From Tepidanaerobacter syntrophicus (GTDB taxonomy: Bacteria > Bacillota > Thermosediminibacteria > Thermosediminibacterales > Tepidanaerobacteraceae): a DNA stretch of 64,000 bases. Positions 5,154 to 25,140 of the stretch are shown here, piece after piece. The DNA is taken from positions 158,001-222,000 of the forward strand of contig NZ_DF976999.1 of assembly GCF_001485475.2 (NCBI RefSeq). The letters are read 5' to 3'. Under the pieces are notes generated by a model. It ran no database searches and was not told the origin of the DNA. It worked only from the letters and a program-made list of their open reading frames with translations. A program made the translations under genes and the position numbers. The first letter of the stretch is position 1; each line of letters opens with the position of its first letter.

Positions 5154-5164
5154 GGAGGATTTAG

Positions 5165-7101: not shown

Positions 7102-9865
7102 ATTAGAAGAAAATGGCATCAAAATCATGTGTTTTTCACCGTCAGGTATTATCAAAATACCTCTCTTTTTAAATTCAAAGGAAAAGCTAAAAGATCTTTC
7201 TACCAGAGATTTTGAAAAGCTCAATTTATTAGATTCATTTTGGCAAAAGAGCCTGGTAGCAGAAGGAAAAGACAATGATTGCTGCTTCATGTTCTATGAT
7301 TCATTATATGAAATACCGGAAATGGATCGCAAAATCCTTGGTCTTCCTATAGAGAGGGATATTACTGCAAAGGTTAGATCCAAGGGTATCTTATATAGAT
7401 CAAATTTTAATGTAACAGCTCAGTTATATTTAAACCATGAACCATTGGGAAAACTTTTTAGGCGGCATAAAAATATAGTTTATTTCGGAAAAGAATATAT
7501 ACTGCTGCCTAAAGAGATTTATGATCTGCTTTCAGAAATTGAAAAGTATTCAACTACTGATAATCCTGTAGAGCAGGCAAAGTTTGTCGCTAAGATTAAA
7601 TATAAGGCAAAACTTGCCGGCGCGGAGCTTGATAAAATCCTCCAAGCAGAAGAAGTTTATTTCCCTGATAAACTGGATGTAGAAATAAAAAAACACTCTG
7701 ATGAACATTTAGAGCTTTTCCCAAAGTTGGGAGAAGAAATTGACGAAATCATAAAAGATGTGCAAAGACCATTGGCATCTTACAACACCCTTCGCGGCGA
7801 AGGCATAAATCGAAGAAGGATTTTTCTTGAAGATAATGTAAAGCAAAGTTACAACAAAATCATCGAAAAGAAAGATATTAAAGGCGCAGATGTTCCTAAA
7901 TTTTTAACAAACCCTTACTCTGTCCTTCCGGAGGAAATAGATATTTCAAAGTTTGGCCAAAGGGTAAAAGAGTTAGGTCTTAGAGTGTATAGAGCAAACC
8001 CATATGTTAGTGTAACCCCCGATAAAAATTCTTCCGGATGGTTTGATTTTGACTCCGGTGGCATTGTAGAGCCCATAATGTATGGGAATGATTTTGATAA
8101 AGATGAGCAAGAAGTAGAGAAAGCCGCAGATGTAAAAAAAATTAATCTAGAAGAATTAAAAATGCTTGCAGAAAAAGCCAAAGAGCAAGGCGAAGATCAT
8201 ATTTATTATGATGGTCAATGGATAAATATCGATGTTGACAAAACTGAAAATTTCATCGCAACATGGGAAAGAGAATTGGGAGCTAAGAAAAAAATTTATT
8301 TATCCAAGCTTCCTTATGTTTTGAAAATTTTTGAGAATATTGACTCATTAGAGTATAACGAAACCGCATTTAAAATTAAAAATCAGCTCACCAGAAGATT
8401 TGATGTATCGGATTTTGAGGCTCCTGCTAATCTTGCTAACTGTAACCTCTTTAAGCATCAAAAGGAAGGCTATCTTTGGATGCGAAACTTGAGGCAAAAT
8501 CTGCTGGGAGGACTTTTAGCTGATGATATGGGGCTAGGTAAGACTTTGCAGGTAATAGCTTTTATGTGTTTTTTGAAGGATAATGATGCTTTAAGCCCAT
8601 CCTTAGTAATTGCACCTTCCACACTACTTGATGTATGGGAAAGGGAAATAGGCAATTTTTCAAAAATAACCTCCGTCTATCAGCATCGAGGTCTTAATCG
8701 ATATAAGAATATAGAAATGATAAAAAACTATGATGTAGTGCTTACTACATATGAAACGCTGGTAAAAGATCAGCTGATATTAGGACAAATCGACTGGCAG
8801 GTAGTAGCATGTGATGAGGCTCAGAAGATAAAAAACAGTACGACATTAAGCACCATAGCTGTTAAGGCTTTAAAAGCAAAGACCAAACTTGCCGTTACCG
8901 GTACGCCTGTGGAAAATAATCTGGGAGAATTATGGTGTATAGTAGATTTTGTGCAGCCGGGGCTGCTGAATAGTTATAACGAATTTAGGAACCGTTTTCA
9001 AAAACCTATTGAAAACAATATAGAAAAAGGTGATCGCTCAAGACAAGCAAGAGATGAACTTTTAAATACAATAAAGCCGGTATATATCAGAAGAGAAAAA
9101 GAGGATATTTTAGATTTGCCGAAAAAACACGAGCATTCTTTAGCGGTAGATCTCTCATCTGTTCAAGAAAAGATTTACAGCTGCCTTATACAAGAATATA
9201 AGGCAGGCAGAAAAGAACAAAAAGGCATGGCTCTGGCAGTAATTCAGAAACTTATTCAAGTTTGTGCTCATCCTCGCTTAGTATCAGGAAATGAATTAGT
9301 TTCTACAAAGCAGTTAATTGATGAATCAGGTAAGCTGAAACTTACATTGAATATATTAGATGAGATACAGCAGCGGGGAGAAAAAGCTGTAATTTTTACC
9401 CATTACAAAAAAATGCAGGCAATACTCAAAAAGGTTTTATTAGATAAATATGGTATAAATTGTTCAGTAATAAATGGAGATGTTAAGCAAAACAGGATAC
9501 AAATAATCGACCACTTTCAAAACACTCCTGGTTTTTCCGTGATAATTCTCTCCACAAGAGCTGCCGGACTTGGCATAACTATCACTGAGGCAAACAACGT
9601 AATCCATTATACCCGAAGCTGGAACCCTGCGGTAGAAAATCAAGCTACTGATAGGGTATACCGAATAGGACAGAAAAGAGATGTAAATATATATTACCCG
9701 ATTTCCGTAAGCAGCCGCGGAAGTACAGTAGATGAAAGGCTAGATGAGATATTGCAGCAAAAGCGCATTTTGGCACGTGATATCGTAATTCCCTCCAAAT
9801 ATATCAAAGTTGGAAAACAAGATATCGAATACCTACTGCAAGATGCATACAGCTTTGAAAAGTAA
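7082..9865 (+). CDS. zorD: ZorD, SNF2-family helicase/nuclease effector of Zorya
   Basis: A 927-residue protein. The N-terminal 450 residues are of unrecognised fold. The C-terminal half is a full SNF2 motor: DDMGLGKTLQ (Walker A) near 480, DEAQ near 577, TGTPVENN, STRAAGLGITITEANNVI, and QATDRVYRIGQ near 855. ZorD in type I Zorya is the effector reported to degrade or translocate phage DNA; known forms are somewhat longer (about 1,080). GGAGG lies 6 bases before the ATG inside the end of zorC. Any nuclease activity would have to sit in the N-terminal half; I see no clear catalytic motif there. Confidence 0.9.
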   Translation: MLDITYELEENGIKIMCFSPSGIIKIPLFLNSKEKLKDLSTRDFEKLNLLDSFWQKSLVAEGKDNDCCFMFYDSLYEIPEMDRKILGLPIERDITAKVRSKGILYRSNFNVTAQLYLNHEPLGKLFRRHKNIVYFGKEYILLPKEIYDLLSEIEKYSTTDNPVEQAKFVAKIKYKAKLAGAELDKILQAEEVYFPDKLDVEIKKHSDEHLELFPKLGEEIDEIIKDVQRPLASYNTLRGEGINRRRIFLEDNVKQSYNKIIEKKDIKGADVPKFLTNPYSVLPEEIDISKFGQRVKELGLRVYRANPYVSVTPDKNSSGWFDFDSGGIVEPIMYGNDFDKDEQEVEKAADVKKINLEELKMLAEKAKEQGEDHIYYDGQWINIDVDKTENFIATWERELGAKKKIYLSKLPYVLKIFENIDSLEYNETAFKIKNQLTRRFDVSDFEAPANLANCNLFKHQKEGYLWMRNLRQNLLGGLLADDMGLGKTLQVIAFMCFLKDNDALSPSLVIAPSTLLDVWEREIGNFSKITSVYQHRGLNRYKNIEMIKNYDVVLTTYETLVKDQLILGQIDWQVVACDEAQKIKNSTTLSTIAVKALKAKTKLAVTGTPVENNLGELWCIVDFVQPGLLNSYNEFRNRFQKPIENNIEKGDRSRQARDELLNTIKPVYIRREKEDILDLPKKHEHSLAVDLSSVQEKIYSCLIQEYKAGRKEQKGMALAVIQKLIQVCAHPRLVSGNELVSTKQLIDESGKLKLTLNILDEIQQRGEKAVIFTHYKKMQAILKKVLLDKYGINCSVINGDVKQNRIQIIDHFQNTPGFSVIILSTRAAGLGITITEANNVIHYTRSWNPAVENQATDRVYRIGQKRDVNIYYPISVSSRGSTVDERLDEILQQKRILARDIVIPSKYIKVGKQDIEYLLQDAYSFEK

Positions 9866-10453: not shown

Positions 10454-11233
10454 TTATTTACTCAGGCCCATACTGTATCTTACCCTGCTTAAGTCTTCTC
10501 CTTTTTTAGGTTTTCTAAAAACAAACAAATGCTCATGCATTATCAGATAAAAGTTATATTTCTCAACTTGTCTTTCCCAGTATGGCGTAGATTTACAATT
10601 ATGCTGAACTTTTATGATATCCTCTTTTAATATGAATCCGTTTTTTAGAAAAAGGTCCATTACATAAAAAGCTAACGGCACATAATGAGAGCTTTTTCTT
10701 GTATCTCCTATCAATATCCCACAATACTTATTTTCTTTTAATACTCTCCGCAGTTCTATAATCCCTTTTTCTAATTCACCACAAAACTTTTTAACTCCTG
10801 ATATATTTGATAAATCTCCGTCAATGCCTTTTGAATATTCTATTATATTCAGGTATGGAGGATGTGTTATTATCAGATCTATGCTTCCATCACTTATTTC
10901 ACGTAAGTTTCTTATGTCGCCTACTTTTACAATAGGGTTGTATTTATAATCACCTTCAAATTCCAGGTTTTTCTTGGCTATTTCAACCGCTTGAGGATTT
11001 ATATCAAAACCTATGCCCTGCCTATTTAGCAGTTTGGTCTCTATAAGGGTTGTTCCGCTTCCTACCATTGGATCGAGCACTACATCTCCCTCTTGAGAAT
11101 ATCTCAATATAAGATTTCTGGGTATCTGTGGTGCAAAATTGCCTCGATAATTTCCGTTGTGTGTTTTCCATTTACCCCTATCGGGAAAGGACCAAACAGT
11201 AGTTATTTCTTTCTTAAAATTTATATTTTCCAT
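10454..11233 (-). CDS. Extra DNA methyltransferase of the DpnII R-M operon
   Basis: A 259-residue amino-methyltransferase with the SAM motif DPMVGSGTT at 54-62 followed by catalytic motif IV THPPY at 123-127. Motif I comes before motif IV, so this is not a DpnA-type protein, which has the reverse (beta) order. The histidine before PPY is unusual beside the normal D/N/S-PP-Y. It starts inside the end of the endonuclease gene with GGAGG upstream, so it belongs to the same operon. In DpnII systems a second methylase often protects single-stranded or hemimethylated GATC. Whether this one does, or modifies another site as N4-cytosine or N6-adenine, is unknown. Confidence 0.78.
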   Translation of the reverse strand: MENINFKKEITTVWSFPDRGKWKTHNGNYRGNFAPQIPRNLILRYSQEGDVVLDPMVGSGTTLIETKLLNRQGIGFDINPQAVEIAKKNLEFEGDYKYNPIVKVGDIRNLREISDGSIDLIITHPPYLNIIEYSKGIDGDLSNISGVKKFCGELEKGIIELRRVLKENKYCGILIGDTRKSSHYVPLAFYVMDLFLKNGFILKEDIIKVQHNCKSTPYWERQVEKYNFYLIMHEHLFVFRKPKKGEDLSRVRYSMGLSK

Positions 11234-12144
11234 AATATTTCCTCCAATAACCCCGTACGAACAAAATGAAGATTTAATAAATAATCTACTCTTTCAAATC
11301 CTTTTTCTATCTGGTTCTTTTGATCCTTCCATCCGATACCGTCTGTAACCCAAATAAATTCAAAACCGTTTTCTCGCAATTCATTTTGTCTTTCTATATA
11401 AGAATCCACTATTTCTTGGGGCTTTGAGCCAGACCCGGAAAAAAAGTTGACTTCAATGTTAATCACTTTACGATTATCCTTAATAATTATAAAATCCGCC
11501 TTTCTATTTTTTATAGAAGAGTTTACCTTAAAGTCAAAATTATCCTCAAGATATTTAAATTGCTTTTGATACAGCATTGTATATGAAGCCCTTTGCTTTG
11601 CAATTATATCTTCTATGATAGGTTTTAAAACCATCTCCATGGCATGGCCGCTTCTATTCTTCCTTGCATTAGTATCCATTCCAACTTCTATACCTGTTAC
11701 ATAATCCTGTATGCTATTTGACGACAGCTCAAGGAAGAATCTCTTTAAACCCGTCTTATTAAAAAACTCTGTGATAGCATCAATATCATTAGAAGTTAAT
11801 TTCCTCTTGCTAAAATCATAAGTTACCGTATCGGAACTATCATCTATAAAATCCTTAACCACTTTGAATTTTCGTTCTCTTATCGCCAAGAGAATTGGAA
11901 TTGCCGGAATAACCTGTGGATATTCTATTAAAATCTTCCTCAAATCCGAATCAAAATTTTTACTGCCGATTAGGGTGTTTAATATATTAAATTCGATTTT
12001 GTACTCCTCTACATTTCTTTTAACCTTGTCCCAATCGACGAAAAAATTATAACCTCTATTAGTATCAATCAATGTATCATAAAATTTGTCTATCACAGCT
12101 TCTGCGCTGTCAACTTTTAGTCTTGCAAAATAGGATGAGTCCAT
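11221..12144 (-). CDS. dpnB: DpnII-family type II restriction endonuclease (GATC)
   Basis: A 307-residue protein with strong DpnII-family signatures: ILNTLIGSKN (54-63), DYVTGIEVGMDTNARKNRSG (147-166), KADFIIIKD from 215, and IEVNFFSGSGSK (230-241) with Glu231 in the PD-(D/E)xK-like core. DpnII cuts unmethylated GATC. I place the start at 12144 because GGGGGT lies directly upstream; an in-frame earlier start at 12168 would add eight residues overlapping dam. Gene order here is dam, endonuclease, second methylase. Its first 110 bases are duplicated in the remnant at 3140-3250. Confidence 0.9.
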   Translation of the reverse strand: MDSSYFARLKVDSAEAVIDKFYDTLIDTNRGYNFFVDWDKVKRNVEEYKIEFNILNTLIGSKNFDSDLRKILIEYPQVIPAIPILLAIRERKFKVVKDFIDDSSDTVTYDFSKRKLTSNDIDAITEFFNKTGLKRFFLELSSNSIQDYVTGIEVGMDTNARKNRSGHAMEMVLKPIIEDIIAKQRASYTMLYQKQFKYLEDNFDFKVNSSIKNRKADFIIIKDNRKVINIEVNFFSGSGSKPQEIVDSYIERQNELRENGFEFIWVTDGIGWKDQKNQIEKGFERVDYLLNLHFVRTGLLEEILWKI

Positions 12145-12160
12145 GTGCTGACCCCCACAA

Positions 12161-13123
12161 TCAATCATAATTTCTTATAACCAGTTCTTTAATACTGCCT
12201 CGCTTTTTGCCATCGCAATTAATAGATCTTTTGGCATTTACTCGCTCGATTTTGAAACCGGAATAAAGAACATCAAAAAAATCGTCGTTTATGTCTTCAT
12301 TTTTGGGATCGGAATTGCTTAGGATTAAAAAAGCGCCTTTTTTATCCATTTCTTTGTAATAATTAGCCAATCTGATTTGATCCTCATCGTTAAAACCATC
12401 TTTATCATAACTTGTAAAATAAGATGTTTTGTTTAAAGGTCTATATGGTGGATCAAGATACACTAAGGTATTAGCATCGATAAATTTTTTGCTTTCTTCG
12501 AAATCTGTCGAAAATACATATGTGTTTTTAAGCGCCTCATTAACTCTTAACAGATTTTCCTTATCACAAATAGTAGGATTTTTATATCTGCCAAAAGGCA
12601 CATTGAACTTTCCTCTTTTATTTTGTCTGAATAAGCCGTTAAAACAGGTTTTATTTAAAAATATTAAATATGCTGCTCTTTTTATCCAATCGCTGTTATA
12701 TGTTTCATAATTAAAATTATCCTGCTGATTATTGTATTCATCTCTTGTTTTGTAGTAATATTCTTTTCTATCAATTTCAGGTAGGTTTATATATTCATCT
12801 TCAATTCTTTCAAGTTCGTACATTAATTCTTGAACATCCTTTTGAATAACTTTATACCCGATAATTAATTCCTTGTTTATATCATAGAGAAATGACTCTT
12901 TCACCTCATAATTACTTTTTAAAAAAAAGAAAAAAGCGCCACCACCTACAAAGGGTTCCACATATCTTTGAACAGTTTTAGACATCTTTATTTTAAGTGG
13001 TAGTCTGTCAGATAACTCGTTTAACAACTGTGTTTTGCCCCCTGCCCACTTTACAAACGGCTTGGCTTCTTTTTCAAATATATTCCCTGTATTTTGGCAT
13101 AAAATTAATTCACTGTTTTGCAT
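12161..13123 (-). CDS. dam: Dam/DpnM-type adenine methyltransferase (GATC)
   Basis: A 320-residue D12 class N6-adenine methyltransferase. The SAM-binding motif FVKWAGGK is at 23-30 and the catalytic DPPY at 224-227, followed by TSYFTSYDKDGFN. This class methylates GATC and protects host DNA from the adjacent DpnII nuclease. It is first in a three-gene minus-strand operon and has a clear promoter at 13163-13192. Its two ends are duplicated in the collapsed module left of Zorya. Confidence 0.93.
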   Translation of the reverse strand: MQNSELILCQNTGNIFEKEAKPFVKWAGGKTQLLNELSDRLPLKIKMSKTVQRYVEPFVGGGAFFFFLKSNYEVKESFLYDINKELIIGYKVIQKDVQELMYELERIEDEYINLPEIDRKEYYYKTRDEYNNQQDNFNYETYNSDWIKRAAYLIFLNKTCFNGLFRQNKRGKFNVPFGRYKNPTICDKENLLRVNEALKNTYVFSTDFEESKKFIDANTLVYLDPPYRPLNKTSYFTSYDKDGFNDEDQIRLANYYKEMDKKGAFLILSNSDPKNEDINDDFFDVLYSGFKIERVNAKRSINCDGKKRGSIKELVIRNYD

Positions 13124-13441: not shown

Positions 13442-16400
13442 TTATTTCCCCATGACTTTATCCATCAGCATTTCGTAGCTGTCTACCACATCGTATTTGA
13501 CTGTATCGTTGCTAATTTTTTTGAAATGTTCTCCCGCACAGTGAATTTTGGCTTCTTCTATACCTCTCGTGTCAAATTTTAATGATTCTAGTTTCCCTTT
13601 GGTTTCGGCGATAAAGTATATATGTCTTACCTTGCCTTCGTTGAATACAATGGCCCAGTCCGGACTGTAGTTCCCTACCGGAGTTGGTATGAAGAATCCT
13701 CTGGGAAGCTTGGCGTATACGCATACCTCAGCACTGCTGTCCAGTTCTTCGGCAAATCGTTTTTCAACATCGGAATCAGTGACTACATAATCGTAAACGT
13801 GTTTTTTTACTTCCCAAGCATTTTTGCCTATAGTTCCGGTTAAAGTGTTTTCAGTGAAGATGGTTGTATCAAAAACTTCATCTATTGGATTATAAGCAAT
13901 ATGCTGTATTATCATGGCAGCCTTTTGTTCATTTATAATCCTTGCAGTTTTTATGATAAATTCTTCGGGATTTTTCCGGAATAAGTAAAAGGTCATCGGC
14001 TTAATGCCTTTAAGAATGTTAACTATCGCATTTCTTGTTAGTTTGGTTTCATCTACCATTTTTCCTACCAAATCATATCTTATAGCAGGGGTTACTGCTG
14101 AATAATCTTTATCTATAGCTGTTTCCTTGACTTTAAACGCTTCTCCTCTTTCCAGCTCTTCTTTTGAGGATATAGATTTCATTTCCCCTGTCTTTACCTG
14201 ATAGGTTATATCAGATACTTTTAAATCTCTGTCTAATGCAATAATACAGTTTTTAATCAATTCCTTCGTATCAAAGTCAACATAATATGCAGTTTTTACA
14301 TTTATCTTATTCCACAGTTCTTGAAATTCCCTTTTCTTAAAATTCTCATTGACTTTTAGTTCTTTAATATTTTCTTCTCTGCTATTTTCCACAAGAGGTG
14401 TAACGCCTTCACTATATATTTTACCTACTAATTGAATAATCCCTTCCTTGAAATCATTTACTTCCTCCGGTAAATTTATCTTATTTTCTTCCAGAGCCTT
14501 ATAGTATTTTTCAGTTAAAATATCATTATCATCTACATACATATTTCGTATAAATGAGCGGTGAAGGGTATTCGCTAGGCTTTCATCTATAAATAATTCT
14601 TCTCCTTTGGCATTTTTAACTACATTGTTTAAGAAAAACTCTGCATTTGCTTTTTGAGGTCTGTCGGATAAGGTTTCTGCAATTTCCGACTGCAAGCTTT
14701 TTGCAAAGGATTCATAAGATTCACTGGCTATTACTGTAAGTACATTTATATCATGGACATCTATTCCCGGAGTTTCTCCGTCTATCCTATTACCATCTTG
14801 GTCTACACAAAGCCTGAGGCCTCTCCCTACTTCCTGTCTTTTTCTTATGATAGAATCGCTGTGCTTTAAAGTGCATATCTGAAATACATTCGGGTTGTCC
14901 CAGCCTTCCCTTAAGGCAGAGTGGGAAAAAATAAATCTGGTTGGTTCATCAAAGCTCAGCAGCCTTTCCTTATCCTTCATTATCAAATCATAGGCAGATT
15001 CATCCTCGGAAATCTTCTCTTTGCCTTTAGCTGATGGGTCTACCATTCTCCCCTTGCTATCTATGGAAAAATATCCTTTATGAGTATCTTCCACATCAAT
15101 GGATTTTAGGTATTTTACATATGAATCATCAAATAGGGTTATGTATTCATTTAGTACGTTCATATATTCTTCTTCAAAAATTTCTCCATATTCCCCATTT
15201 ACTTGATTTCCACTTTCATCATATTGCCTGTATTTTGCCACCTCATCTATAAAAAAGAGAGTAAGCACCTTTATTCCCTTGTTATAGAGTGATTTTTCCC
15301 TTTCAAAGTGAGACTTTATCGCTTCACGAATCTGGATTCTTCTTAAATTAGTTTCACTGATGTCGCCTTGGACATCGCCAGCATTAAGCGTAACTCCGTT
15401 TGTAAAGCTTATGATGTTTTTATAGCCGTTTATCTCGGATAAGGTGTATCCCTTATATTGCTCCATATAATTGGAATGAGTATATAAATCAAATCCTTCA
15501 TCCACATTTCTGGTAACTCTTTTAATTCCATTCTTTTGTTTAACTTCGAATTCTATCCTGGCTACCGGCTTGCTCTTGGTGCTTACATCTATTCCTTCAA
15601 AATAAATGTAGCTATTGGTTCCGGTCAGTCCTTTTACTGTAATTCCTTTCACCTTGATTTTCTTTACGAGTTTCATATTATAAGCATCCAGAGCATCTAA
15701 TCTATATATCTTATTGTAATCTTCCTTGTGAGTTGCCGAATATCTTAAGGTAAATAATGGCTTGAAAAGCTTTAACGCTTCTTTGGTTTTCTTGCCTTCT
15801 ACGGATTGAGGCTCATCTATTATAAGGATGGGATTGGTCTGGGCAAGAACGTCTATGGGTCTTCTGGTACCAAAATCGTCCAGTTCCTCATATATCTTTC
15901 GAGCATCTTTACCCCGTGCATTAAAGGCTTGGGAATTTATTATCATAGCATTGATACCGGAATCAGAGGCAAATTGATCTATTTTATGAAGTTGTTTGGA
16001 ATCATATATAAAATATCGGATTTTTGTACCATATAAATCCATAAAATGGTCTTCAGTTATTTGAAAAGATTTATATACTCCTTCTCTAATTGCAATAGAA
16101 GGCACTACTATTATGAATTTTTTCCAACTATAGGCTCGATACAGTTCATACATAGTTCGAATATATGTATAGGTTTTTCCTGTTCCTGTTTCCATTTCAA
16201 TTGTCAGATTATATCTGCCCTCTAATCTGTCCGAGGGTTTTAGGCCATTTCTTAATTGAACTTTTCTGATGTTTTTTAATACATCATCTTCTGCCAATCC
16301 TATGGGATTGTTCCTGAAACCAATTTCATCTATAAAACTTACTTGACCTTCTATTTCTCCCTTTACCCTACCAGTATCCAGTTGAAAATGGGAAACATGA

Positions 16401-16480
16401 TTTGACTGTCCTCTAAAACAATCCACGACAGATTCTACCGCATCTATTTGAAACTTCTGCTGTTTAAATTTAAGCTTCAT
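13442..16480 (-). CDS. res: Type III restriction enzyme Res subunit
   Basis: A 1,012-residue protein with an SF2 helicase core: METGTGKTYTYIRT near 96-109, a DEAD-box equivalent IIDEPQSVEG, and VGRGLRLCVD as motif VI. The C-terminal PD-(D/E)xK nuclease appears as YSPDWAIVF near 938 and YFIAETKGK about 16 residues later. Res subunits join Mod to translocate and cut between head-to-head sites. I prefer the ATG at 16480 (GAGGGGTGA 8 bases upstream). The ATG at 16495, overlapping the mod stop as ATGA, is the alternative. It is last in the operon, directly after the full-length mod. Confidence 0.9.
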   Translation of the reverse strand: MKLKFKQQKFQIDAVESVVDCFRGQSNHVSHFQLDTGRVKGEIEGQVSFIDEIGFRNNPIGLAEDDVLKNIRKVQLRNGLKPSDRLEGRYNLTIEMETGTGKTYTYIRTMYELYRAYSWKKFIIVVPSIAIREGVYKSFQITEDHFMDLYGTKIRYFIYDSKQLHKIDQFASDSGINAMIINSQAFNARGKDARKIYEELDDFGTRRPIDVLAQTNPILIIDEPQSVEGKKTKEALKLFKPLFTLRYSATHKEDYNKIYRLDALDAYNMKLVKKIKVKGITVKGLTGTNSYIYFEGIDVSTKSKPVARIEFEVKQKNGIKRVTRNVDEGFDLYTHSNYMEQYKGYTLSEINGYKNIISFTNGVTLNAGDVQGDISETNLRRIQIREAIKSHFEREKSLYNKGIKVLTLFFIDEVAKYRQYDESGNQVNGEYGEIFEEEYMNVLNEYITLFDDSYVKYLKSIDVEDTHKGYFSIDSKGRMVDPSAKGKEKISEDESAYDLIMKDKERLLSFDEPTRFIFSHSALREGWDNPNVFQICTLKHSDSIIRKRQEVGRGLRLCVDQDGNRIDGETPGIDVHDINVLTVIASESYESFAKSLQSEIAETLSDRPQKANAEFFLNNVVKNAKGEELFIDESLANTLHRSFIRNMYVDDNDILTEKYYKALEENKINLPEEVNDFKEGIIQLVGKIYSEGVTPLVENSREENIKELKVNENFKKREFQELWNKINVKTAYYVDFDTKELIKNCIIALDRDLKVSDITYQVKTGEMKSISSKEELERGEAFKVKETAIDKDYSAVTPAIRYDLVGKMVDETKLTRNAIVNILKGIKPMTFYLFRKNPEEFIIKTARIINEQKAAMIIQHIAYNPIDEVFDTTIFTENTLTGTIGKNAWEVKKHVYDYVVTDSDVEKRFAEELDSSAEVCVYAKLPRGFFIPTPVGNYSPDWAIVFNEGKVRHIYFIAETKGKLESLKFDTRGIEEAKIHCAGEHFKKISNDTVKYDVVDSYEMLMDKVMGK

Positions 16481-16491
16481 CAAATCACCCC

Positions 16492-18354
16492 TCATAAAAC
16501 TTTAATCTCCGTGCCGGGAGATATGGCTTTAAATATTTCTTCCAGGTTTATTCTGTCAGGACAGGATTTAAAGGAGTTATCTCTAAATACTACCTTTAGC
16601 GGCTTAGTTTTAGCTATCTCTTTAACTAATTTTTCATCTACATCTTCATCAAAACATGCCACAAGTGAATCACCTGCTACAAAATGAACTTCTTTGCCGT
16701 AAATCTTTTTTGTTTCAATCGGCAGCGACAGCTCAAGGCCTGCCTCAAGCATTACTTGCGTTAGCAGATCCAAGCCGGTTCTATCTTCTTTTATATTGGA
16801 TTCTAATTGGTCCAAAAGATTTTGGTCAAGTTCATCAGGCCTGTAATATACATCCTTCATGTTTGAAGAATCTACTCTATATACCCTAAAACCATAATCT
16901 ATATCTGCGCCAGTTTCTTCCTTTATCTTCTTTCCTGCACGGCGAATACGTTCTTTGCCTATTTCGGCGATGTTTTTAAAGCCTGCTTTATAGGCCTCGG
17001 ATTTTTCGTCACAAGGCTCAGGCAGTTGAACCATGATGTATTTGCGACCTCCCCCATCCTCTGCATTAAGCTCCATCACTGCATGGGCAGTGGTGGCGGA
17101 GCCGGAGAAGAAGTCGAGGATGAAACAATCGTTACTTGTATAAAGTTCTATAACTCTTTTTATCAATTTTACTGACTTGGGATAATCATAAAATGCTTTA
17201 CCATCAAACAATTTATTTAATTCTTGCTTTGCTTCTTGAGAATGACCTACTTCTTCATACTTCCAAATTGTTAGAGGCGTCATTGTGCTTTTTACTTCTG
17301 ATAAGAATCTTTTTATACTAGGCACATTATTGCCATCCTCCCCAAACCAAATTCTATTGTCTTTAACCATTTCTTCAAATCTTTCTTTAGTATATCTCCA
17401 GCAGTATCCTTCAGGTGGCAATACTTTTCTGCCACTTGGAGTAGTTATTTCATAAACTTTTTCCGGAACTATCGGTCCAACAGATAAATCGCTAGATTTC
17501 CAAGGACCTCTTGGATCATTATCTGGATTTTTGTATCTTTTATCGGCTTCTCCGCTTCTTTCCAAGCCATTGCAAACAAGTTGATCTATGTTTTTAGCAT
17601 ATGACACCATATAATCATGATTTTCAGAAAAATGTTTTTTCAGGTTTACCGGAGCATACGCTCTTTCCCATACCACCGTTGCGACAAAATTCCTCTCCCC
17701 AAATATCTCATCGCAAATCTTCCTGAGATTATGCACTTCATTGTCATCTATAGATATAAATATTACTCCGTCTTCGGATAGCAGGTTTCTGGCAAGTTTT
17801 AATCTTGGATACATCATTGTCAGCCAGTCGCTGTGAAATCTTCCGTTGTATTCGGTGTTTTGAAAGAGCCTGTTGCCGTCTTCATCTACTTGGCCCGATT
17901 CTTCTGCGTATTCATCTTTGTCCTGGGTAAAATTGTCCTTATATATAAAATCTTTACCGGTATTGTAAGGCGGGTCTATGTATATGCATTTTATCTTGTT
18001 TAGGTAGGATTCTTGAAGTAGTTTTAGGACTTCCAGGTTGTCTCCTTCTATATATAGATTCTCTGTATCTTCCCAGCTTACGCTGTCTTCTTTTACCGGT
18101 CTTAGGGTTTTATCTATGGGGGTATTAGCTCTAACAACAGCTTCTTTTTTCCCCGGCCAGGTTAGTTGATATCTCTCCTTGCTGCCTTCAACTATTTCAT
18201 CGCTTAACTCCTGCTGCAAAAGTTCAAAGTCTATGGCATGGGTTATATTGCCATCTTCATCTTTTATTTCTGTGATTACATTAGGAAAGAGTTTACCTAT
18301 TTTTTCTACATTTTCTTTAGTAATATCTTTTGATCTCATTTTTAGTTTCTTCAT
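16492..18354 (-). CDS. mod: Type III Mod, DNA adenine methyltransferase (full length)
   Basis: A 620-residue beta-class methyltransferase. It has an N-terminal cap with LTWPGK, catalytic DPPYNTGKDFIY from 127, a central target-recognition region (about 215-385), the SAM motif FFSGSATTAHAV near 413, and a 108-residue C-terminal domain after YGFRVYRV. Mod sets the recognition sequence for both methylation and Res cutting. The start has AGGAGG 6 bases upstream and overlaps the DUF4391 stop (ATGA). Its 3' methyltransferase block is almost identical in DNA to that of the second mod at 22354-23892, while the central region is not. Confidence 0.92.
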   Translation of the reverse strand: MKKLKMRSKDITKENVEKIGKLFPNVITEIKDEDGNITHAIDFELLQQELSDEIVEGSKERYQLTWPGKKEAVVRANTPIDKTLRPVKEDSVSWEDTENLYIEGDNLEVLKLLQESYLNKIKCIYIDPPYNTGKDFIYKDNFTQDKDEYAEESGQVDEDGNRLFQNTEYNGRFHSDWLTMMYPRLKLARNLLSEDGVIFISIDDNEVHNLRKICDEIFGERNFVATVVWERAYAPVNLKKHFSENHDYMVSYAKNIDQLVCNGLERSGEADKRYKNPDNDPRGPWKSSDLSVGPIVPEKVYEITTPSGRKVLPPEGYCWRYTKERFEEMVKDNRIWFGEDGNNVPSIKRFLSEVKSTMTPLTIWKYEEVGHSQEAKQELNKLFDGKAFYDYPKSVKLIKRVIELYTSNDCFILDFFSGSATTAHAVMELNAEDGGGRKYIMVQLPEPCDEKSEAYKAGFKNIAEIGKERIRRAGKKIKEETGADIDYGFRVYRVDSSNMKDVYYRPDELDQNLLDQLESNIKEDRTGLDLLTQVMLEAGLELSLPIETKKIYGKEVHFVAGDSLVACFDEDVDEKLVKEIAKTKPLKVVFRDNSFKSCPDRINLEEIFKAISPGTEIKVL

Positions 18355-19022
18355 CTGGGACCTCCTAGGTTATTTCTGAGTTCTTTTAACTCTTTTTTCT
18401 TTTTTTGAAGCTGTATGTTTAAATCCACTTTTTTATTAAATTGTTTTTCCCTTTTTATTTTGCCTTCCAGCTTTGATATTTCTTTTTCTAATTGTTCTCG
18501 GATTTGATTTAACTCTATTAGTTCTTCTATATCATCTTCGGGTGTGCTCTCGATAGGAAGCAGCTGTCTTATGATGTTATCGTAGACATCCTTTAAATCA
18601 AGCCCTTTGAGTATATCTATTTTTAATTCATCTTCCTTTATCCAGTCTGATTGATAATAGGAATGGACCACCATTTTATTCTCATCAATTTTATTTCTTT
18701 CTTTATACGCTATGGCAAGCTTTACATTATCATCGTATCTTAAAATATATATTATGGGATACGGGATTGCCCTGTCTATGTTTTCAAGAATTTCCTGTGA
18801 AATGTATTTTTCTTTTAGGCTTATTTCAAATATCTGGATTTCTTCCACATCTTCTGTGGGACCCAAATTTACCGTATCCTTAGATAGCTTATACTTCCAT
18901 GTTATTCTTTCTATTTCATCTGTGAATTTCTTTTCCAGCTTCGTATCTGTTCCTATCTGCTGATAAAATTTGTTTTTCGGTATTCGGCGATTGTACAAGG
19001 CTTTATCAGGTATATTCAGCAT
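18351..19022 (-). CDS. DUF4391 protein of the helicase/type III cassette
   Basis: A 223-residue protein beginning MLNIPDKALYNRRIPKNKFY, the usual DUF4391 start. The middle has IPYPIIYILRYDD, and the C-terminal third (about 165-218) is a charged coiled coil rich in Lys, Glu and Leu. DUF4391 proteins are repeatedly found between a PLD-type helicase and type III Mod/Res genes; their biochemical role is unknown to me. The coiled coil suggests it bridges or caps subunits. It lies four bases after the helicase stop and overlaps mod by four bases. Confidence 0.8.
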   Translation of the reverse strand: MLNIPDKALYNRRIPKNKFYQQIGTDTKLEKKFTDEIERITWKYKLSKDTVNLGPTEDVEEIQIFEISLKEKYISQEILENIDRAIPYPIIYILRYDDNVKLAIAYKERNKIDENKMVVHSYYQSDWIKEDELKIDILKGLDLKDVYDNIIRQLLPIESTPEDDIEELIELNQIREQLEKEISKLEGKIKREKQFNKKVDLNIQLQKKKKELKELRNNLGGPR

Positions 19023-19026
19023 GAAT

Positions 19027-22000
19027 TCACATCTTCCTTATGACTACAAAGGATATAAGTTCAAAATCATCCAGCCCTTTTATGGAATCTAACAGCGCTG
19101 TGGTGCCTCCTGAACTAAAAAGGCTGTCTATATCGGATTCTTGGTTTACATCGATTATGGATTTTATAGCATCTTCTAGTAGTCTGGAATACTTATCCAT
19201 TTTCTTACCATCTCTTGTTTCTTTGTTAAAAGGTCTATATACTTCTTTAATGGGTTTGTTTTTGCCTTTACATCCGCTGCGCAGTACATCTAATATTTTC
19301 TTCACCTTTAGGTGGTTAACGACCACTTCCCCCTCATAATCTATATATACTAAATAAAAGGGATATAGAACATTTTGTTTATTTACATCTATATCATCAT
19401 TTATATTTTTCAAGACAAAGATTACCCCTGGGCTTATCCCTTTTTCTTCATCAGCTTTTATAACCGTATGAAGACCATTAGGAACCTTATCTAAATCTCC
19501 GTTTTCTTTTACAAAACTCACTAAATCCATCCTAAAATCATTTAAGCCCAAATCCGTAATAGATATCCCTGTGTTGATATCTTCTAAATCCAAAACTTCC
19601 TCCTGAAGTTTTTTTAACTGTTCTTTTCTATATTCTAGGTCTGTGGATTGATTAGACAAATAGTTGTCATCTCCGGTTGCCGTCATATTAACTATGACCA
19701 TTCGGTTTTCTACTCGTTCTCTAAGATTTATATATTCATCTAAGCTCATATTAGGCCAAAAATTTACTAGTTGTATTACATCGTTTTTTGAGCCAATGCG
19801 GTCAATTCTTCCAAATCTTTGAGTTATCCGAACCGGATTCCAGTGGATGTCATAGTTAACAAGGTAATCACAATCCTGAAGGTTTTGGCCTTCAGATATG
19901 CAATCGGTGGCTATTAGGATGTCTATTTCTCCTCTTATATGGGGCATAACTAGATTTTTTTCTTTGGATATAGGGGAAAAGCAAGTGATGATAGTATGAA
20001 AATCGTTTTTTAGTTTTAGAGTGTTTTTGTTTGCATCGGAGCCAACGACTTTTGCAGTGTGAAGATTAAACTTCTCCAGAACATATGGAGCTATTTCTTC
20101 GTATAAATAATCGGCCGTATCGGCAAAAGCGGTAAAAATGATTATTTTTTTGTTGCCTTTATTTATTGGATTAGTGATTTTTTCTTTTATTATGTATTTT
20201 AAAGTGGATAATTTTAGGTCATGAGGCGGGGTTATTTTGCTCATTTCTTCCAGCAAGTAGCTTATTATCTCTCTGTCATGAATTAAATCTTCTCGCCATG
20301 AAATCCTGTCCATATCCGAAAGGTTAATTTTTACTTTGTCCCCAATACTGTATTCCTCATCGAGCCAATCATCTTCATCAAGGTTGATATTCTCTATTTC
20401 TTTATACGTCGTAATTTCCTTTGATGCATAGCTGTCAAATTTATCGATTTCTTCAATTGTTGTATCGATGTTATTCAGCATTTTGGACAATGTAATTCTA
20501 AAGGCGTCCACTGAACTTTCCAGCCTTTTTAGTAAATTTATTCTCATTAAGGTCTGCAGGCTTCGCTCTCTGTCTGATTGTTTTAAACTGCCTAAGCCGC
20601 CTTTGACAATAGTATCATATATGCTTTCATAAAAAGACATTTTGCTGGGTAAAATATAATTAAATGGTGCATAAAAACTTAAATTTAACTTTGATAATTC
20701 CTTGTATATTTCATTATAGCTTATGACATCCGAGCGTTGTGTGAGATTGCAAAAATGAGATATGGGCTTTAGACGCTTGGGAAATCTGCCTATTTCGTCT
20801 ACATTATAGTATTTTTGAATATGCTTTCGAGATCGTGCTATTGTAAGACTGTCCAGTAGTTCGAAAAAATCAAAATCTAGCATACTCAAAAGGGTCTCTG
20901 TAGTTCTTTCGGAAGTAGGCATCTTTGACCATTTATTAAAAGAGTACTGGGCTCTTTTAAAAATGTCATCAATGTCGCGTTTCGTATTTAACTTCGCATT
21001 TATATTTGAAGGGTTCCCTTCATAGACCAAGGCTAGTTGGTTTTTTAAATCATTGAACCTATTGTTGACAGGTGTTGCCGAAAGCATTAAGACATCAGTT
21101 TTAACACCGGTTTTGATTACTTTTCTCATAAGTCTTTGGTATCTGGTTTCCCTGCCTTTTATGGGGTCATTGTTTCTAAAGTTGTGGGATTCGTCAATTA
21201 CCAATAAATCATAATTGCCCCAATTAAGTCTTTCAAGACTAATGCCGTTAGTGTAGCCGCCATCTCTAGACAAATCTGTATGATAGAGAACATCATAGTT
21301 GAATCTGTCTTTGTGTAATATATTATTGGTATAGTTTTCTCTGTAGGTAAGCCAGTTTTCCGCAATTTTTTTAGGACATAGCACCAATACATTTTTATTT
21401 CGCAGTTCATAATATTTTATAACTCCTAAAGCAGTAAAGGTCTTGCCCAAACCTACACTATCAGCCAATATACATCCATGGTATTTTTGCAGTTTATTGA
21501 TAATACCTATAACGGCATCTTTTTGGAAATTATAAAGTCTATTCCAAATTTCTGTTTCTTTGAATCCGGTAGATTCATTCGGGAGTAAGTCTTCGGTAAT
21601 ATCTTCCAAAAATTCATTGAAGATATTATATAATATTACAAAATAAATAAATTCCGGAGGATTTTCTTTATACACCGTCGATATGTATTCCACCACTTCC
21701 TCTGTTATATCTTCCATTTTATCATCATCGTTCCAAACCTGTTCAAACAAATCCAGGTAAGCTTTTGTAGCAGAATAATCATCAATCTTAGTGACAATAT
21801 TTGATAAATTATTCCCCCGTTCAAATCCCAAATCTACTGTAGTAAAGCCCTGAATTGGCATATATGTTATTTTTCCATCATCATTTTCGATATTCATAAA
21901 ACCTTGCAAAAAAGCATTTGTTTTATTTGATTTAAAAATTACTTTTCGCCTTATCCAATCACTGCATTCTCGTGCTATGGCTTTTTGTGCGAGTTCATTC

Positions 22001-22275
22001 TTTAGCTTTATTTCATATTCTGTACCATATATACTTCTTTCCCTGTTTAGTTTCGGTATGTAAAACTCCCGCTGTTCTTTTTCTATTTTATCTTTTATAA
22101 AGGTGGGAGAATTGAATATAAATCTTAACTCCTCTATCTGCTCCAATTCTTTTTTTAGTGACTCATAGGCATATATGGAAAAACATGAAGCAGCAATTGA
22201 TACTTTTGAACCTCTTTTGATGGTATGTTTTAAATCATCACCGAGTAGTTTCTTTATATTATTAATGACCTCCAC
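19027..22275 (-). CDS. Large SNF2/SF2 helicase with PLD-like N-terminus
   Basis: About 1,082 residues. The first 60 resemble the phospholipase-D-like cap of defence helicases (VSIAASCFSIYAYESLKKEL), but no HKD catalytic motif is visible. The motor shows SVGLGKTFTAL near 270, DESHNFRNND near 360, LSATPVNN, and QRFGRIDRIGSK near 820. GTG 22275 follows GAGGTG by 7 bases and fits the family start better than the ATGs at 22299 or 22290. It probably translocates on DNA as part of the same defence operon as DUF4391, Mod and Res. The relation to classical two-subunit type III enzymes is unclear. Confidence 0.85.
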   Translation of the reverse strand: MEVINNIKKLLGDDLKHTIKRGSKVSIAASCFSIYAYESLKKELEQIEELRFIFNSPTFIKDKIEKEQREFYIPKLNRERSIYGTEYEIKLKNELAQKAIARECSDWIRRKVIFKSNKTNAFLQGFMNIENDDGKITYMPIQGFTTVDLGFERGNNLSNIVTKIDDYSATKAYLDLFEQVWNDDDKMEDITEEVVEYISTVYKENPPEFIYFVILYNIFNEFLEDITEDLLPNESTGFKETEIWNRLYNFQKDAVIGIINKLQKYHGCILADSVGLGKTFTALGVIKYYELRNKNVLVLCPKKIAENWLTYRENYTNNILHKDRFNYDVLYHTDLSRDGGYTNGISLERLNWGNYDLLVIDESHNFRNNDPIKGRETRYQRLMRKVIKTGVKTDVLMLSATPVNNRFNDLKNQLALVYEGNPSNINAKLNTKRDIDDIFKRAQYSFNKWSKMPTSERTTETLLSMLDFDFFELLDSLTIARSRKHIQKYYNVDEIGRFPKRLKPISHFCNLTQRSDVISYNEIYKELSKLNLSFYAPFNYILPSKMSFYESIYDTIVKGGLGSLKQSDRERSLQTLMRINLLKRLESSVDAFRITLSKMLNNIDTTIEEIDKFDSYASKEITTYKEIENINLDEDDWLDEEYSIGDKVKINLSDMDRISWREDLIHDREIISYLLEEMSKITPPHDLKLSTLKYIIKEKITNPINKGNKKIIIFTAFADTADYLYEEIAPYVLEKFNLHTAKVVGSDANKNTLKLKNDFHTIITCFSPISKEKNLVMPHIRGEIDILIATDCISEGQNLQDCDYLVNYDIHWNPVRITQRFGRIDRIGSKNDVIQLVNFWPNMSLDEYINLRERVENRMVIVNMTATGDDNYLSNQSTDLEYRKEQLKKLQEEVLDLEDINTGISITDLGLNDFRMDLVSFVKENGDLDKVPNGLHTVIKADEEKGISPGVIFVLKNINDDIDVNKQNVLYPFYLVYIDYEGEVVVNHLKVKKILDVLRSGCKGKNKPIKEVYRPFNKETRDGKKMDKYSRLLEDAIKSIIDVNQESDIDSLFSSGGTTALLDSIKGLDDFELISFVVIRKM

Positions 22276-22353
22276 GTGTAAACACCTCATGCAATTCAAT
22301 TCATATATTTTATTCTACAATTGAGTAGCTTTTTCCTTCAGTCATGTTAAATT

Positions 22354-23892
22354 TTAGTCTGTGGTAATTCTATATACCCTAAAACCATAATCTATATCTG
22401 CGCCGGTTTCTTCCTTTATCTTCTTTCCTGCACGGCGAATACGTTCTTTGCCTATTTCGGCTATTGTTTCGTAACCTGCTTTATAGGCCTCGGATTTTTC
22501 GTCACAAGGCTCAGGCAGCTGCACCATTATGTATTTGCGGCATCCGCCATCCTCTGCATTAAGCTCCATCACCGCATGGGCAGTGGTGGCAGAGCCGGAG
22601 AAGAAGTCGAGGACGATTTCGTTTTCAAGATAAAACATCTTTAATAGATATTTTAGCAGTGCCACAGGTTTTGGAAAAGAAAACACGGCTTTGCCGAATA
22701 ATTTTCGCATCTCTCGATTTGCATGAATATTGAGAATGCTCTCCTCGAACCCGATATGATTTTTATAAGGCTTAGTTCTTGTAATTTTGTTGCCCTTATT
22801 GTCTAGTTTTTCATATACTTTGTTATATACATTCCACCTGCCGCCCCGCCCCTTCTTCACCACTATGTATCCGTTTTTAATTCCCCACTCTACTTTTGCT
22901 TTGCTCCACACCCACCGCCACCCGTCATTAGACTGTTTTGTGCGGCCATTTGGAAAAACTAAAGTCCCATCAGGTGCTTTTATGCCAAAATCCATACTTT
23001 CCACATATCCCTTGCTGCCTCTATCCAGTTTTTCAAGCTTGTAGCCCCCTCTTTCTTTAAAATGTTCATCTTTGTATTTAAATTTTCCATCATAAGCGTC
23101 TATCTCTTTATTGTTAAACCTTACATCTTCCACATTTTTCGCATAGGCTAAAATGTATTCAGTTTCTATAATCACATATTTAGAGTCATTGCCTGAGCCT
23201 TTTGATTTTCGCCAAATGAAATTTGCTATAAAGTTTTTCTCGCCGAAAATTTCATTGCAGATTTTGCGCAAGTTGCACTCCTCTTTGTCGTCAATGCTTA
23301 TAAAAATTACTCCATCGTTTTTAAGTAAGGCTCGAGCCACTTTTAGCCTAGGGTATATCATGGTAAGCCAGCTGCTGTGATACCTGCCGTCGCGATCGGC
23401 GTTTTGTGTATCATCTTCGCCCCTAGTTTTTCCGGCTTTTTGTGCATACTCCTCTTTTCCTAATATAAATTTGTCTTTATATATAAAATCTTTGCCGGTA
23501 TTGTAAGGCGGGTCAATATAAATGAACTTTATTTTACCTGCATGCGACTTTTGTAGGAGCTTCAAGGTTTCCAGATTGTCTCCTTCTATATAAATATTTT
23601 CTGTGGCTTCCCAATTTAGGCTGTCTTCTTTTATAGGTCTTAGCATCTTATCTGCAGGACTGTTTGCAATAGTAAGTGCTTCTTCTCTTCCGGGCCACGT
23701 CAAAAGGTATCTTTTGCTATCGCTTTTTACTACCGTATCCCCCAGTTCTTCTCTAAGCTTTTCAAAATCTATAACTTGTCTTATACTGCCTTCTTCATCT
23801 TTTACCTTTTCAACAACATTTGGAAAAAGTTTCCCTAGCTTTTCTATCTTGAAATTTATTTCTTCATCTCCTGTTATATCAAGCTTTTTCAA
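22354..23892 (-). CDS. Second type III Mod paralogue lacking the C-terminal domain
   Basis: A 512-residue beta-class methyltransferase. It has the same cap and DPPYNTGKDFIYKD from 127 as the downstream Mod, a completely different central recognition region (about 215-370), then FFSGSATTAHAV and a stop right after YGFRVYRI. The last 108 residues of the full Mod are absent. The catalytic motifs are intact, so it may still methylate DNA, but it probably cannot assemble with Res if that tail is the contact surface (inference). It lies 22 bases after the upstream methyltransferase and 78 before the helicase start, in one apparent operon. Confidence 0.87.
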   Translation of the reverse strand: MKKLDITGDEEINFKIEKLGKLFPNVVEKVKDEEGSIRQVIDFEKLREELGDTVVKSDSKRYLLTWPGREEALTIANSPADKMLRPIKEDSLNWEATENIYIEGDNLETLKLLQKSHAGKIKFIYIDPPYNTGKDFIYKDKFILGKEEYAQKAGKTRGEDDTQNADRDGRYHSSWLTMIYPRLKVARALLKNDGVIFISIDDKEECNLRKICNEIFGEKNFIANFIWRKSKGSGNDSKYVIIETEYILAYAKNVEDVRFNNKEIDAYDGKFKYKDEHFKERGGYKLEKLDRGSKGYVESMDFGIKAPDGTLVFPNGRTKQSNDGWRWVWSKAKVEWGIKNGYIVVKKGRGGRWNVYNKVYEKLDNKGNKITRTKPYKNHIGFEESILNIHANREMRKLFGKAVFSFPKPVALLKYLLKMFYLENEIVLDFFSGSATTAHAVMELNAEDGGCRKYIMVQLPEPCDEKSEAYKAGYETIAEIGKERIRRAGKKIKEETGADIDYGFRVYRITTD

Positions 23893-23913
23893 GCGTTAAA
23901 CCCCCTATGTCAT

Positions 23914-25140
23914 CTAATCTTTAACAAAAAGTACAATTCTATTGGTGTTAGTTCCCGATTTATTATTTCCGATTCCCCAGATATTCGATGTCTTTGTAAA
24001 CTCTTGAAGGTTTATTAATATACCTTGACAGCAAAAGCCGGCCTTCTGTCCGAGGGGCACCACATATTCATCAAGTTTTATCTTGCCGCCCTTTACTTCG
24101 CCAACTTCAAAGGCCACCCATCCGCCTTTTTTTGTTATGCGGTAAAGCTCGTAAAAAACTTCTTCCATTACGCAAGACCATTCTTGAATATTTTTTGACA
24201 TAGTAATAGTATTTGCAACCTTTTTTGCATCTATACCATTAAACCAGCACCGAAGCCAATTGTCGCTGTCATATTGGACCACATCTAAAAAGGGCGGAGA
24301 TGTAACCGTAAGGCTTACTGACTCATTAGGAATTTGCGGGGTGCGCCTTGCATCTTCGCTGAGGAAAAGAGCGCTATTGCCTGTTTTTCGTAAATTTAGT
24401 ATTTCTTGTTCCTTTATATTTCGAATCAGGCTTTTGGTTTTTTTCATTATGAGTTTTTTTGTATCTCTATATTCCGGTTTTTGATTCCTCTTTGCGTTTA
24501 TAAGTTGCTGTCTTTCGGCAGTTACAGCTTGATTGGGCGGTAGGGTGTAAACAGAGAAAAAACCGGGGGAATGTCCTGTCAGCCGGTTTGTAGCCACCAT
24601 TCTTATCCATAAGTCGACAATATCTTCCTTCTTCTCTGATTCTCTTTGTTTTAAATAGTTTTTAAGTGACACAATTTCTGCCTCTGTTTTTGGATGGTAA
24701 AACATCGAAAGATCGATATCTGCACGAAGTTTCGTGTCATATGTGATATTTTCAAGCCTTTCTTTTACTTCTATAACATTCGGCACAAAAAAACGCGGCA
24801 GTGTAAGGATTCGGCTTAAAGGGTTTATGTCATTTGAAACGATATTTCTGCCCAAAATCCCTGCTTCAATTGCTGTAGTTCCTCTTCCGGAAAAGGGATC
24901 GTAGACAATGTCGCCTTCTTGTGTAAGAAGATTTATAAAAAACCGGGGCAGCTGCGGCTTAAAACATGCCCTATAGGATATTTCATGAATAGAAGACGCC
25001 TGTCTTTGCTTAGATGTCCAGAATTCGTTTGTATAAACAGGTATTTTATTGCCATTAATATTTATATATTCGGTTTTTGTTTTTGAGGTTAAAACAAAAT
25101 CTTTAATATATCGCGCTGCATCACGGGGGCTATGTGACAA
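23914..25140 (-). CDS. Stand-alone DNA methyltransferase (probable N4-cytosine type)
   Basis: A 408-residue methyltransferase with motif I DPFSGRGTT at 81-89 and motif IV TSPPFLDVVQYD near 280. The SPP motif in this order is typical of N4-cytosine enzymes. The insertion between the two motifs probably recognises the target. The TTG start has GAGGTGA 5 bases upstream. It leads the minus-strand operon that continues with mod2, helicase, DUF4391, mod and res. It could be an extra protective methylase for that system or an independent orphan. No endonuclease gene is adjacent. Confidence 0.82.
   Translation of the reverse strand: MSHSPRDAARYIKDFVLTSKTKTEYININGNKIPVYTNEFWTSKQRQASSIHEISYRACFKPQLPRFFINLLTQEGDIVYDPFSGRGTTAIEAGILGRNIVSNDINPLSRILTLPRFFVPNVIEVKERLENITYDTKLRADIDLSMFYHPKTEAEIVSLKNYLKQRESEKKEDIVDLWIRMVATNRLTGHSPGFFSVYTLPPNQAVTAERQQLINAKRNQKPEYRDTKKLIMKKTKSLIRNIKEQEILNLRKTGNSALFLSEDARRTPQIPNESVSLTVTSPPFLDVVQYDSDNWLRCWFNGIDAKKVANTITMSKNIQEWSCVMEEVFYELYRITKKGGWVAFEVGEVKGGKIKLDEYVVPLGQKAGFCCQGILINLQEFTKTSNIWGIGNNKSGTNTNRIVLFVKD

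What the first reader, a model, noticed from the sequence alone, without database searches (positions are those of the whole stretch)
22354..23892. Second Mod with new recognition region and no C-terminal domain
Both Mods share the N-terminal cap and catalytic block, but the central recognition region differs completely. The shorter one stops right after YGFRVYRI and lacks the last 108 residues. It could be a silent specificity donor, a methylation-only subunit with a second target, or a decaying gene.
Basis: partly seen in the sequence, partly recalled or inferred. Interest (0 to 1): 0.62.

Follow-up and report, generated by a model that had tools for sequence, protein, structure and literature searches.

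The report
Second Mod without restriction-docking tail
A bacterial DNA-marking enzyme next to a type III restriction system has kept its marking and target-reading parts but has lost the tail by which such enzymes grip the DNA-cutting partner, so it most likely marks a second DNA target without cutting it.

Summary
In detail: window 22354-23892 (-) encodes ModS, a 512-aa paralogue of the 620-aa type III Mod at 16492-18354 (ModL), with an unrelated target-recognition domain (TRD, 24% identity) and no C-terminal domain (CTD). Corrections: about 123 aligned residues are missing, not 108; the N-terminal cap is only 45% identical; and ModL, not ModS, has the unusual TRD. The six closest relatives of ModS (68-73%) are full length and share its TRD; a same-genus genome matches ModL-Res at 96-98% DNA identity except for the TRD, which is of ModS type. 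ModS stops after the last strand of the methyltransferase fold; in EcoP15I the next domain contacts Res. Among related Mods, 44 of 48 with a CTD have Res nearby, against 1 of 10 without. ModS keeps its catalytic motifs, a ribosome-binding site and purifying selection on the TRD. Best reading: a methylation-only Mod keeping the family's common specificity beside a restricting ModL-Res of another specificity, truncated at the junction with an SNF2-DUF4391 cassette. Recent decay is the main rival; a silent-donor role is poorly supported.

The parts
22354..23892 (-). ModS: CTD-less type III Mod-family DNA adenine methyltransferase, 512 aa, TTG start
23901..23906 (-). AGGGGG ribosome-binding site, 8 nt before the TTG start of ModS
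   Evidence: read
23719..23892 (-). ModS N-terminal domain (aa 1-58), fast-diverging (36-45% to all compared Mods)
   Evidence: tree branch 0.59 for aa 1-225
23503..23514 (-). catalytic motif IV DPPY (aa 127-130)
   Evidence: invariant in 35 aligned Mods
22711..23217 (-). ModS TRD (aa 226-394), the TRD type shared with six full-length Mods of relatives
   Evidence: 73-80% identity to G023a, G002, G004, G008, G009, G012; 24% to ModL
22588..22608 (-). AdoMet motif I DFFSGSA (aa 429-435)
22369..22616 (-). 3' block 93% identical in DNA to ModL 16876-17123 (direct repeat; exact runs of 56, 44 and 36 nt)
22300..22353 (-). gap between the ModS stop and SNF2; its SNF2-proximal part resembles the stretch upstream of SNF2 in L007 and G002; no CTD remnant aligned
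23914..25140 (-). upstream N6/N4 methyltransferase (MTII), found in 11 of the 13 genomes of the family examined (this one included), usually without Mod-Res
19027..22299 (-). SNF2-type helicase (PADLOC C3a139, HKD+Snf2)
18351..19022 (-). DUF4391 protein
16492..18354 (-). ModL: full-length Mod, 620 aa
17122..17683 (-). replaced TRD segment of ModL: no match to the G002 locus here, flanks 96% and 98% identical
16495..16863 (-). ModL CTD (aa 498-620) that ModS lacks: linker, then a compact alpha/beta unit
13442..16495 (-). Res, the only copy found in this genome

Best explanation
ModS is a type III Mod that has been uncoupled from restriction. It should form a Mod dimer, bind its own asymmetric target through its TRD and methylate one adenine there; lacking the CTD through which the DNA-reading Mod of EcoP15I holds Res, it cannot (or only poorly) recruit Res, so its sites are marked but do not become cleavage sites. 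ModL-Res in the same gene cluster restricts at a different target. Historically the ModS specificity type is the common one of this family; the locus acquired an SNF2-DUF4391-Mod-Res cassette, ModL's TRD is a replacement, and the Mod of the common specificity was left in front of the cassette and lost its tail by a deletion or recombination at the junction. Shown here: truncation point, intact motifs, TRD type, mosaic structure, selection on the TRD, and the CTD-Res association across related loci. Inferred: enzymatic activity, loss of Res binding, dimer form, order of events.
For: EcoP15I: the CTD (539-644) of ModA makes extensive contacts with Res, the CTD of ModB is solvent-exposed, and dimerization is by NTD and MTase (PMC4490356, passages read). 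The ModS model ends with strand 504-510 and aligns with 4zcf_B up to residue 515 (Z 37.9, rmsd 4.8, 377 aligned), next to the end of the published MTase domain (516); in the ModL model the next residues are a low-confidence linker followed by a compact domain. Across related loci 44 of 48 CTD-bearing Mods have Res within 2 kb, against 1 of 10 CTD-less ones, and the CTD-less ones also stop 2-17 residues after the same motif. Branch omega of ModS: TRD 0.056, MTase-N 0.090, NTD 0.071, omega=1 rejected (2dlnL 77.8, 39.9, 7.6). ModS departs at 2 of 47 columns invariant in the other 34 Mods, as many as six of the others do. Ribosome-binding site and tight gene spacing. One Res in the genome.
Against: No activity data. 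In the 3' block, which looks recently exchanged, the ModS branch has omega 0.26 (background 0.05; 2dlnL 4.2) and omega=1 is not rejected (2.1), so relaxation after the truncation is possible. The N-terminal half is on a very long branch (0.59). All six close relatives are full length, so for this Mod the CTD-less state is seen in one genome only. The locus erodes in sister species (G002 scar; G001 Res scar). At least six of the ten CTD-less comparators also lack the NTD, unlike ModS.
Confidence: 0.55

Rival explanations
1. Recent decay: ModS is a relic of an older Mod-Res operon whose 3' end was deleted when the cassette arrived; it is inactive or on its way out, and the open frame simply has not yet been broken.
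For: Truncation is private to this genome (six close relatives 636-637 aa); omega 0.26 in the apparently young 3' block, not distinguishable from 1; scars of SNF2/DUF4391 in G002 and of Res in G001; G097 (L041) shows a CTD-less Mod whose N-terminus lies in a separate frame.
Against: No frameshift or internal stop in 512 codons, motifs intact, TRD under strong constraint over most of the branch, ribosome-binding site present, cut exactly at a domain boundary.
Confidence: 0.27
2. Heterodimer: ModS occupies the catalytic (ModB) seat beside ModL, where EcoP15I does not use the CTD, so a ModL-ModS pair reads the ModL site, holds Res through ModL and methylates with ModS; the mirror arrangement methylates the ModS site without Res.
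For: EcoP15I division of labour: ModA reads DNA and holds Res, ModB methylates with its CTD free in solvent (PMC4490356). ModS and ModL are encoded in the same cluster and parts of their MTase domains are 66-92% identical.
Against: The NTD, part of the dimer interface in EcoP15I, is the most diverged shared non-TRD part (45%). The other Mod-Res loci examined, with few exceptions, have a single Mod.
Confidence: 0.08
3. Specificity store or switch: recombination between the direct 3' repeats excises SNF2, DUF4391 and the ModL TRD and rebuilds a full-length Mod with the ModS TRD in front of Res, or ModS donates its TRD to ModL by gene conversion.
For: 93% direct repeat with exact runs of 56, 44 and 36 nt, about 5.2 kb apart; MTII-Mod-Res with the ModS-type TRD exists in G008 and G009; TRD replacement has happened in this family (ModL versus G002).
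Against: 5' homology too poor for a double exchange (longest exact run 20 nt); G002's Mod is not such a collapse product (its N-terminal part is of ModL type); excision would be one-way.
Confidence: 0.06

Closest known systems
EcoP15I Mod (4zcf) and other type III Mods (6k0w, 7dsu)
   Same: Beta-class motif order, NTD, TRD between motif IV and motif I; ModS model Z 38.8 to 6k0w_C, 37.9 to 4zcf_B, 30.8 to 7dsu_B
   Different: No CTD, the Res-contacting domain of EcoP15I ModA (PMC4490356)
Two-mod type III loci of Mycoplasma agalactiae 5632 (MAGa1570/MAGa1580 + res; M1 and M2.Mag5632ORF1570P)
   Same: Two Mod genes with one downstream res in one cluster (PMC9465063, passages read)
   Different: There the mods are in tandem and carry GA repeats, and the truncations described come from repeat-length frameshifts or a deletion; here an SNF2-DUF4391 pair lies between them and the upstream Mod ends at a domain boundary
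Mods without functional Res (e.g. Helicobacter pylori modH strains)
   Same: Mod can act without Res; res broken or not detected in some strains (PMC3230613, passages read)
   Different: There the passages describe lesions in or absence of res; here Res is intact but follows another Mod, and ModS has lost its tail
CTD-less Mod homologues in L011, L038, L039 (two), L041, L043, L044, L045, L053, L054
   Same: End 2-17 residues after the same motif
   Different: 9 of 10 have no Res within 2 kb; at least six also lack the NTD

Membership tests
Type III Mod-family beta-class adenine methyltransferase | DPPY motif IV before the TRD and FxGxG-like motif I after it | tested here: met
   DPPY at 127-130; FFSGSA at 430-435 (FxGxA, as in ModL and the family consensus)
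Type III Mod-family beta-class adenine methyltransferase | Profile and fold match to type III Mods | tested here: met
   PDLC03634 568.7 bits; the three top structural matches are type III Mods
Type III Mod-family beta-class adenine methyltransferase | Methylates one adenine of an asymmetric target | not testable with these tools
   needs a methylome or an assay
Restriction-coupled type III Mod (Mod2Res complex) | C-terminal domain that contacts Res | tested here: not met
   absent: stop at 22354, no CTD sequence aligned in the following gap
Restriction-coupled type III Mod (Mod2Res complex) | res gene directly downstream | tested here: not met
   next gene is SNF2; the only Res found in the genome follows ModL
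Two-mod type III locus (M. agalactiae type) | Two mods with different specificity regions and one res, same strand | tested here: met
Two-mod type III locus (M. agalactiae type) | Simple-repeat tract that switches mod expression | not tested
   no repeat search was run on the mod genes
Pseudogene | Frameshift, internal stop, lost catalytic motif or neutral evolution | tested here: inconclusive
   none of the first three; neutrality rejected for NTD, MTase-N and TRD but not for the 3' block

The most novel reading that the evidence does not exclude
ModS and ModL work as a natural asymmetric pair: ModS has been trimmed to the seat that in EcoP15I only methylates, ModL keeps the seat that reads DNA and holds Res, so one Res serves a two-specificity methyltransferase that restricts at one target and only marks the other.
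Probability: 0.08. Interest if true: 0.72.

Novelty: new variant of a known kind. Interest (0 to 1): 0.4.

Why it matters
It suggests a simple rule that can be tested: the CTD of type III Mods is kept where a Res is present and shed where methylation is uncoupled from cutting (44 of 48 against 1 of 10). ModS would be a case in which marking-only and cutting Mods of different specificity coexist around one Res. It also catches a TRD replacement in an otherwise 96-98% identical Mod-Res cassette. If ModS is active, the strain should carry the family's common mark as well as ModL's mark, which would affect DNA exchange with relatives whose Mod-Res has the ModS-type TRD.

Tried and rejected
Chance similarity or mis-assigned ORF: rejected. 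'ModS has the new specificity': rejected, its TRD type is that of six relatives' Mods. ModS as a recent import from a plasmid or phage: no tblastn match of 60% identity or more among the 132 plasmid records (E 1e-60) and 18 phage records (E 1e-40) that matched, no megablast match in plasmids, no confirmed relative in viral contigs. A second Res elsewhere: none found in this genome. Regular presence of a Mod upstream of SNF2: none in the 26 SNF2 rows (L007, where one is seen, is not among them because its SNF2 is cut by the contig end); several of these stretches had little sequence upstream. Promoter and terminator scan: no more than shuffles (28 against 25.0; 6 against 6.0), uninformative. 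Published methylome of a relative: search listing only (7 papers), none opened. CTD deletion experiments: listings only, no paper opened for it. G023 may be a mis-assembled MAG (its contigs break inside SNF2 and inside the second Mod), so its two-Mod layout is held as likely, not sure. A simple gene conversion of the whole 3' block from ModL: not clean, since the protein tree puts ModS beside G008 (support 84) and variable sites are mixed, although DNA identity is highest to ModL and G002. Pairwise dN/dS was saturated for many pairs; the branch model is my own script with an assumed topology.

Rows dropped before the count: 6 Mod ORFs cut by a contig or stretch end and 6 without the motif; the window itself was not counted. 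An earlier count that left out L011 and L013 and asked for a same-strand Res downstream gave 42 of 48 against 1 of 9; a first attempt with a faulty motif pattern was discarded. Loci are related to each other (e.g. L053/L054, L038/L039), so the Fisher value is not a clean probability.

Full report
What is there. On the minus strand, with short gaps or overlaps, lie MTII (25140-23914), ModS (23892-22354), an SNF2-type helicase (22299-19027), a DUF4391 protein (19022-18351), ModL (18354-16492) and Res (16495-13442). ModS starts with TTG, 8 nt after AGGGGG and 21 nt after the end of MTII. ModL has 620 residues, ModS 512, and the part of ModL after residue 497 has no counterpart in ModS.

The truncation point is a domain boundary. 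The AlphaFold2 model of ModS (mean pLDDT 80.6) ends with a strand at 504-510; its three best structural matches are type III Mods, and it aligns with EcoP15I Mod up to residue 515. Gupta et al. 2015 (PMC4490356, passages read) place the MTase domain at 62-262 and 390-516 and the CTD at 539-644, and report that the CTD of ModA makes extensive contacts with Res while that of ModB is solvent-exposed. In the ModL model (mean pLDDT 82.0) residues 501-520 have low confidence (block means 54 and 62) and most of the part after them is confident.

Which Mod is the odd one. The six closest homologues (G023a, G002, G004, G008, G009, G012) are all full length (636-637 aa) and carry the ModS-type TRD at 73-80% identity. 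G002, of the same genus, matches window 18518-17684 at 96.3% and 17121-13437 at 98.2%, but not 17683-17122: its Mod has ModL's backbone with a ModS-type TRD. So ModL's TRD differs by exchange from that of G002, and ModS preserves the common specificity type. The nearest TRD to ModL's among the compared Mods is that of G255 (55%).

How the locus was built. MTII is present in 11 of 13 genomes of the family examined, counting this one, in most cases not followed by Mod-Res. G008 and G009 have MTII-Mod-Res. G023 has a full-length ModS-type Mod followed by an SNF2 that is 98.4% identical in DNA to the window's, and a second contig with SNF2-DUF4391-Mod. G002 keeps three short pieces of SNF2 and the end of DUF4391 in front of its Mod. 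G001 has a short Res remnant after MTII. In the window, the end of ModS runs into sequence resembling that upstream of SNF2 in L007. The last 248 shared bases of ModS are 93% identical to ModL although the first 640 are 68% identical. In this 3' block DNA identity of ModS is 92.1% to ModL and 91.7% to G002, against 78.6-84.9% to the other five, and the ModS branch in a protein tree is short (0.022), whereas it is 0.59 for residues 1-225; against a simple conversion, the same tree places ModS beside G008 with support 84 and the variable sites are mixed. I infer recombination of an older Mod with the incoming cassette and loss of the CTD at the junction; the order of events is not shown.

Is ModS functional? 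A two-ratio codon model (own script, assumed topology, seven sequences) gives omega for the ModS branch of 0.071 (NTD), 0.090 (MTase-N), 0.056 (TRD) and 0.26 (3' block, residues 426-509), backgrounds 0.046-0.070; omega=1 is rejected for the first three (2dlnL 7.6, 39.9, 77.8) and not for the last (2.1). Synonymous distances are near saturation, so the values are rough. ModS departs from 2 of 47 otherwise invariant columns (K69R, Y117H); six of the other 34 Mods also depart at 2. So the gene was functional for most of its history; only the 3' block, if it is as young as it looks, speaks about the time since the truncation, and it leaves relaxation open.

CTD and Res go together. In loci fetched around relatives I classed each Mod ORF by the length after the GFRVY-like motif. 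Of 48 CTD-bearing Mods, 44 have a Res within 2 kb; of 10 CTD-less ones, 1 has, and that Res (L038, 761 aa) matches only the first 607 residues of the window's 1017-residue Res. Six ORFs at an edge and six without the motif were dropped. CTD-less Mods end 2-17 residues after the motif, as ModS does. In L039 two CTD-less Mods with different TRDs stand in tandem; one of them has a CTD-less counterpart in L038 (78-92% identity per block over its TRD; pairwise dN/dS 0.13). One CTD-less case, L041, has its N-terminus in a separate frame and is probably decaying.

Mechanism. By analogy with EcoP15I, ModS should dimerize, read its site with one TRD and methylate with the other subunit, without holding Res. 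Res then restricts only at ModL sites. Shown by sequence: missing CTD, intact motifs, separate TRD, single Res. Inferred: activity, target, dimer state, no Res binding. The fast NTD (36-45% to all compared Mods) would fit loosened constraint on shared interfaces, or an older origin; it does not favour ModS-ModL heterodimers.

Known and new. Two-mod loci with one res are known in M. agalactiae (PMC9465063, passages), and Mods without working res in H. pylori (PMC3230613, passages). What I did not find described, in the search listings, is a CTD-less Mod kept beside a complete Mod-Res of another specificity; these listings cover open-licence papers only and most papers were not opened.

Noticed in passing
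19027-22299 and 18351-19022: SNF2-type helicase plus DUF4391 stands upstream of Mod-Res in 22 of 39 related Mod-Res loci with at least 2.5 kb upstream; the name DUF4391 occurs in one paper of the library. It may be an undescribed accessory module of type III systems.
   Followed up: partly
3540-9865: Four consecutive ORFs that look like a Zorya-type set: a MotA-like and an OmpA-like protein, an unknown protein and an SNF2 helicase (names from reading the translations, no profile search).
   Followed up: no
10454-13123: Three ORFs resembling a DpnII-type set: Dam-like methyltransferase, endonuclease-like protein and a second methyltransferase (from reading, no profile search).
   Followed up: no
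L024:7991-8491 (G002): Scar of three pieces of the SNF2 gene, followed by the end of DUF4391, in front of the single Mod of a same-genus genome.
   Followed up: partly
L082:3921-4048 (G001): Short remnant of Res behind MTII in a same-genus genome that has no Mod of this family at E 1e-20.
   Followed up: no
L043, L044, L045, L053, L054: Short Mod-like methyltransferases of 414-436 aa without NTD, CTD or nearby Res, kept in different species (60-90% identity per block between L053 and L054): candidate solitary methyltransferases.
   Followed up: partly
L008, L030, L034, L035, L048, L049, L055: Further genes of about 200-850 aa stand inside the cluster between DUF4391 and Mod or between Mod and Res in several relatives.
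   Followed up: no
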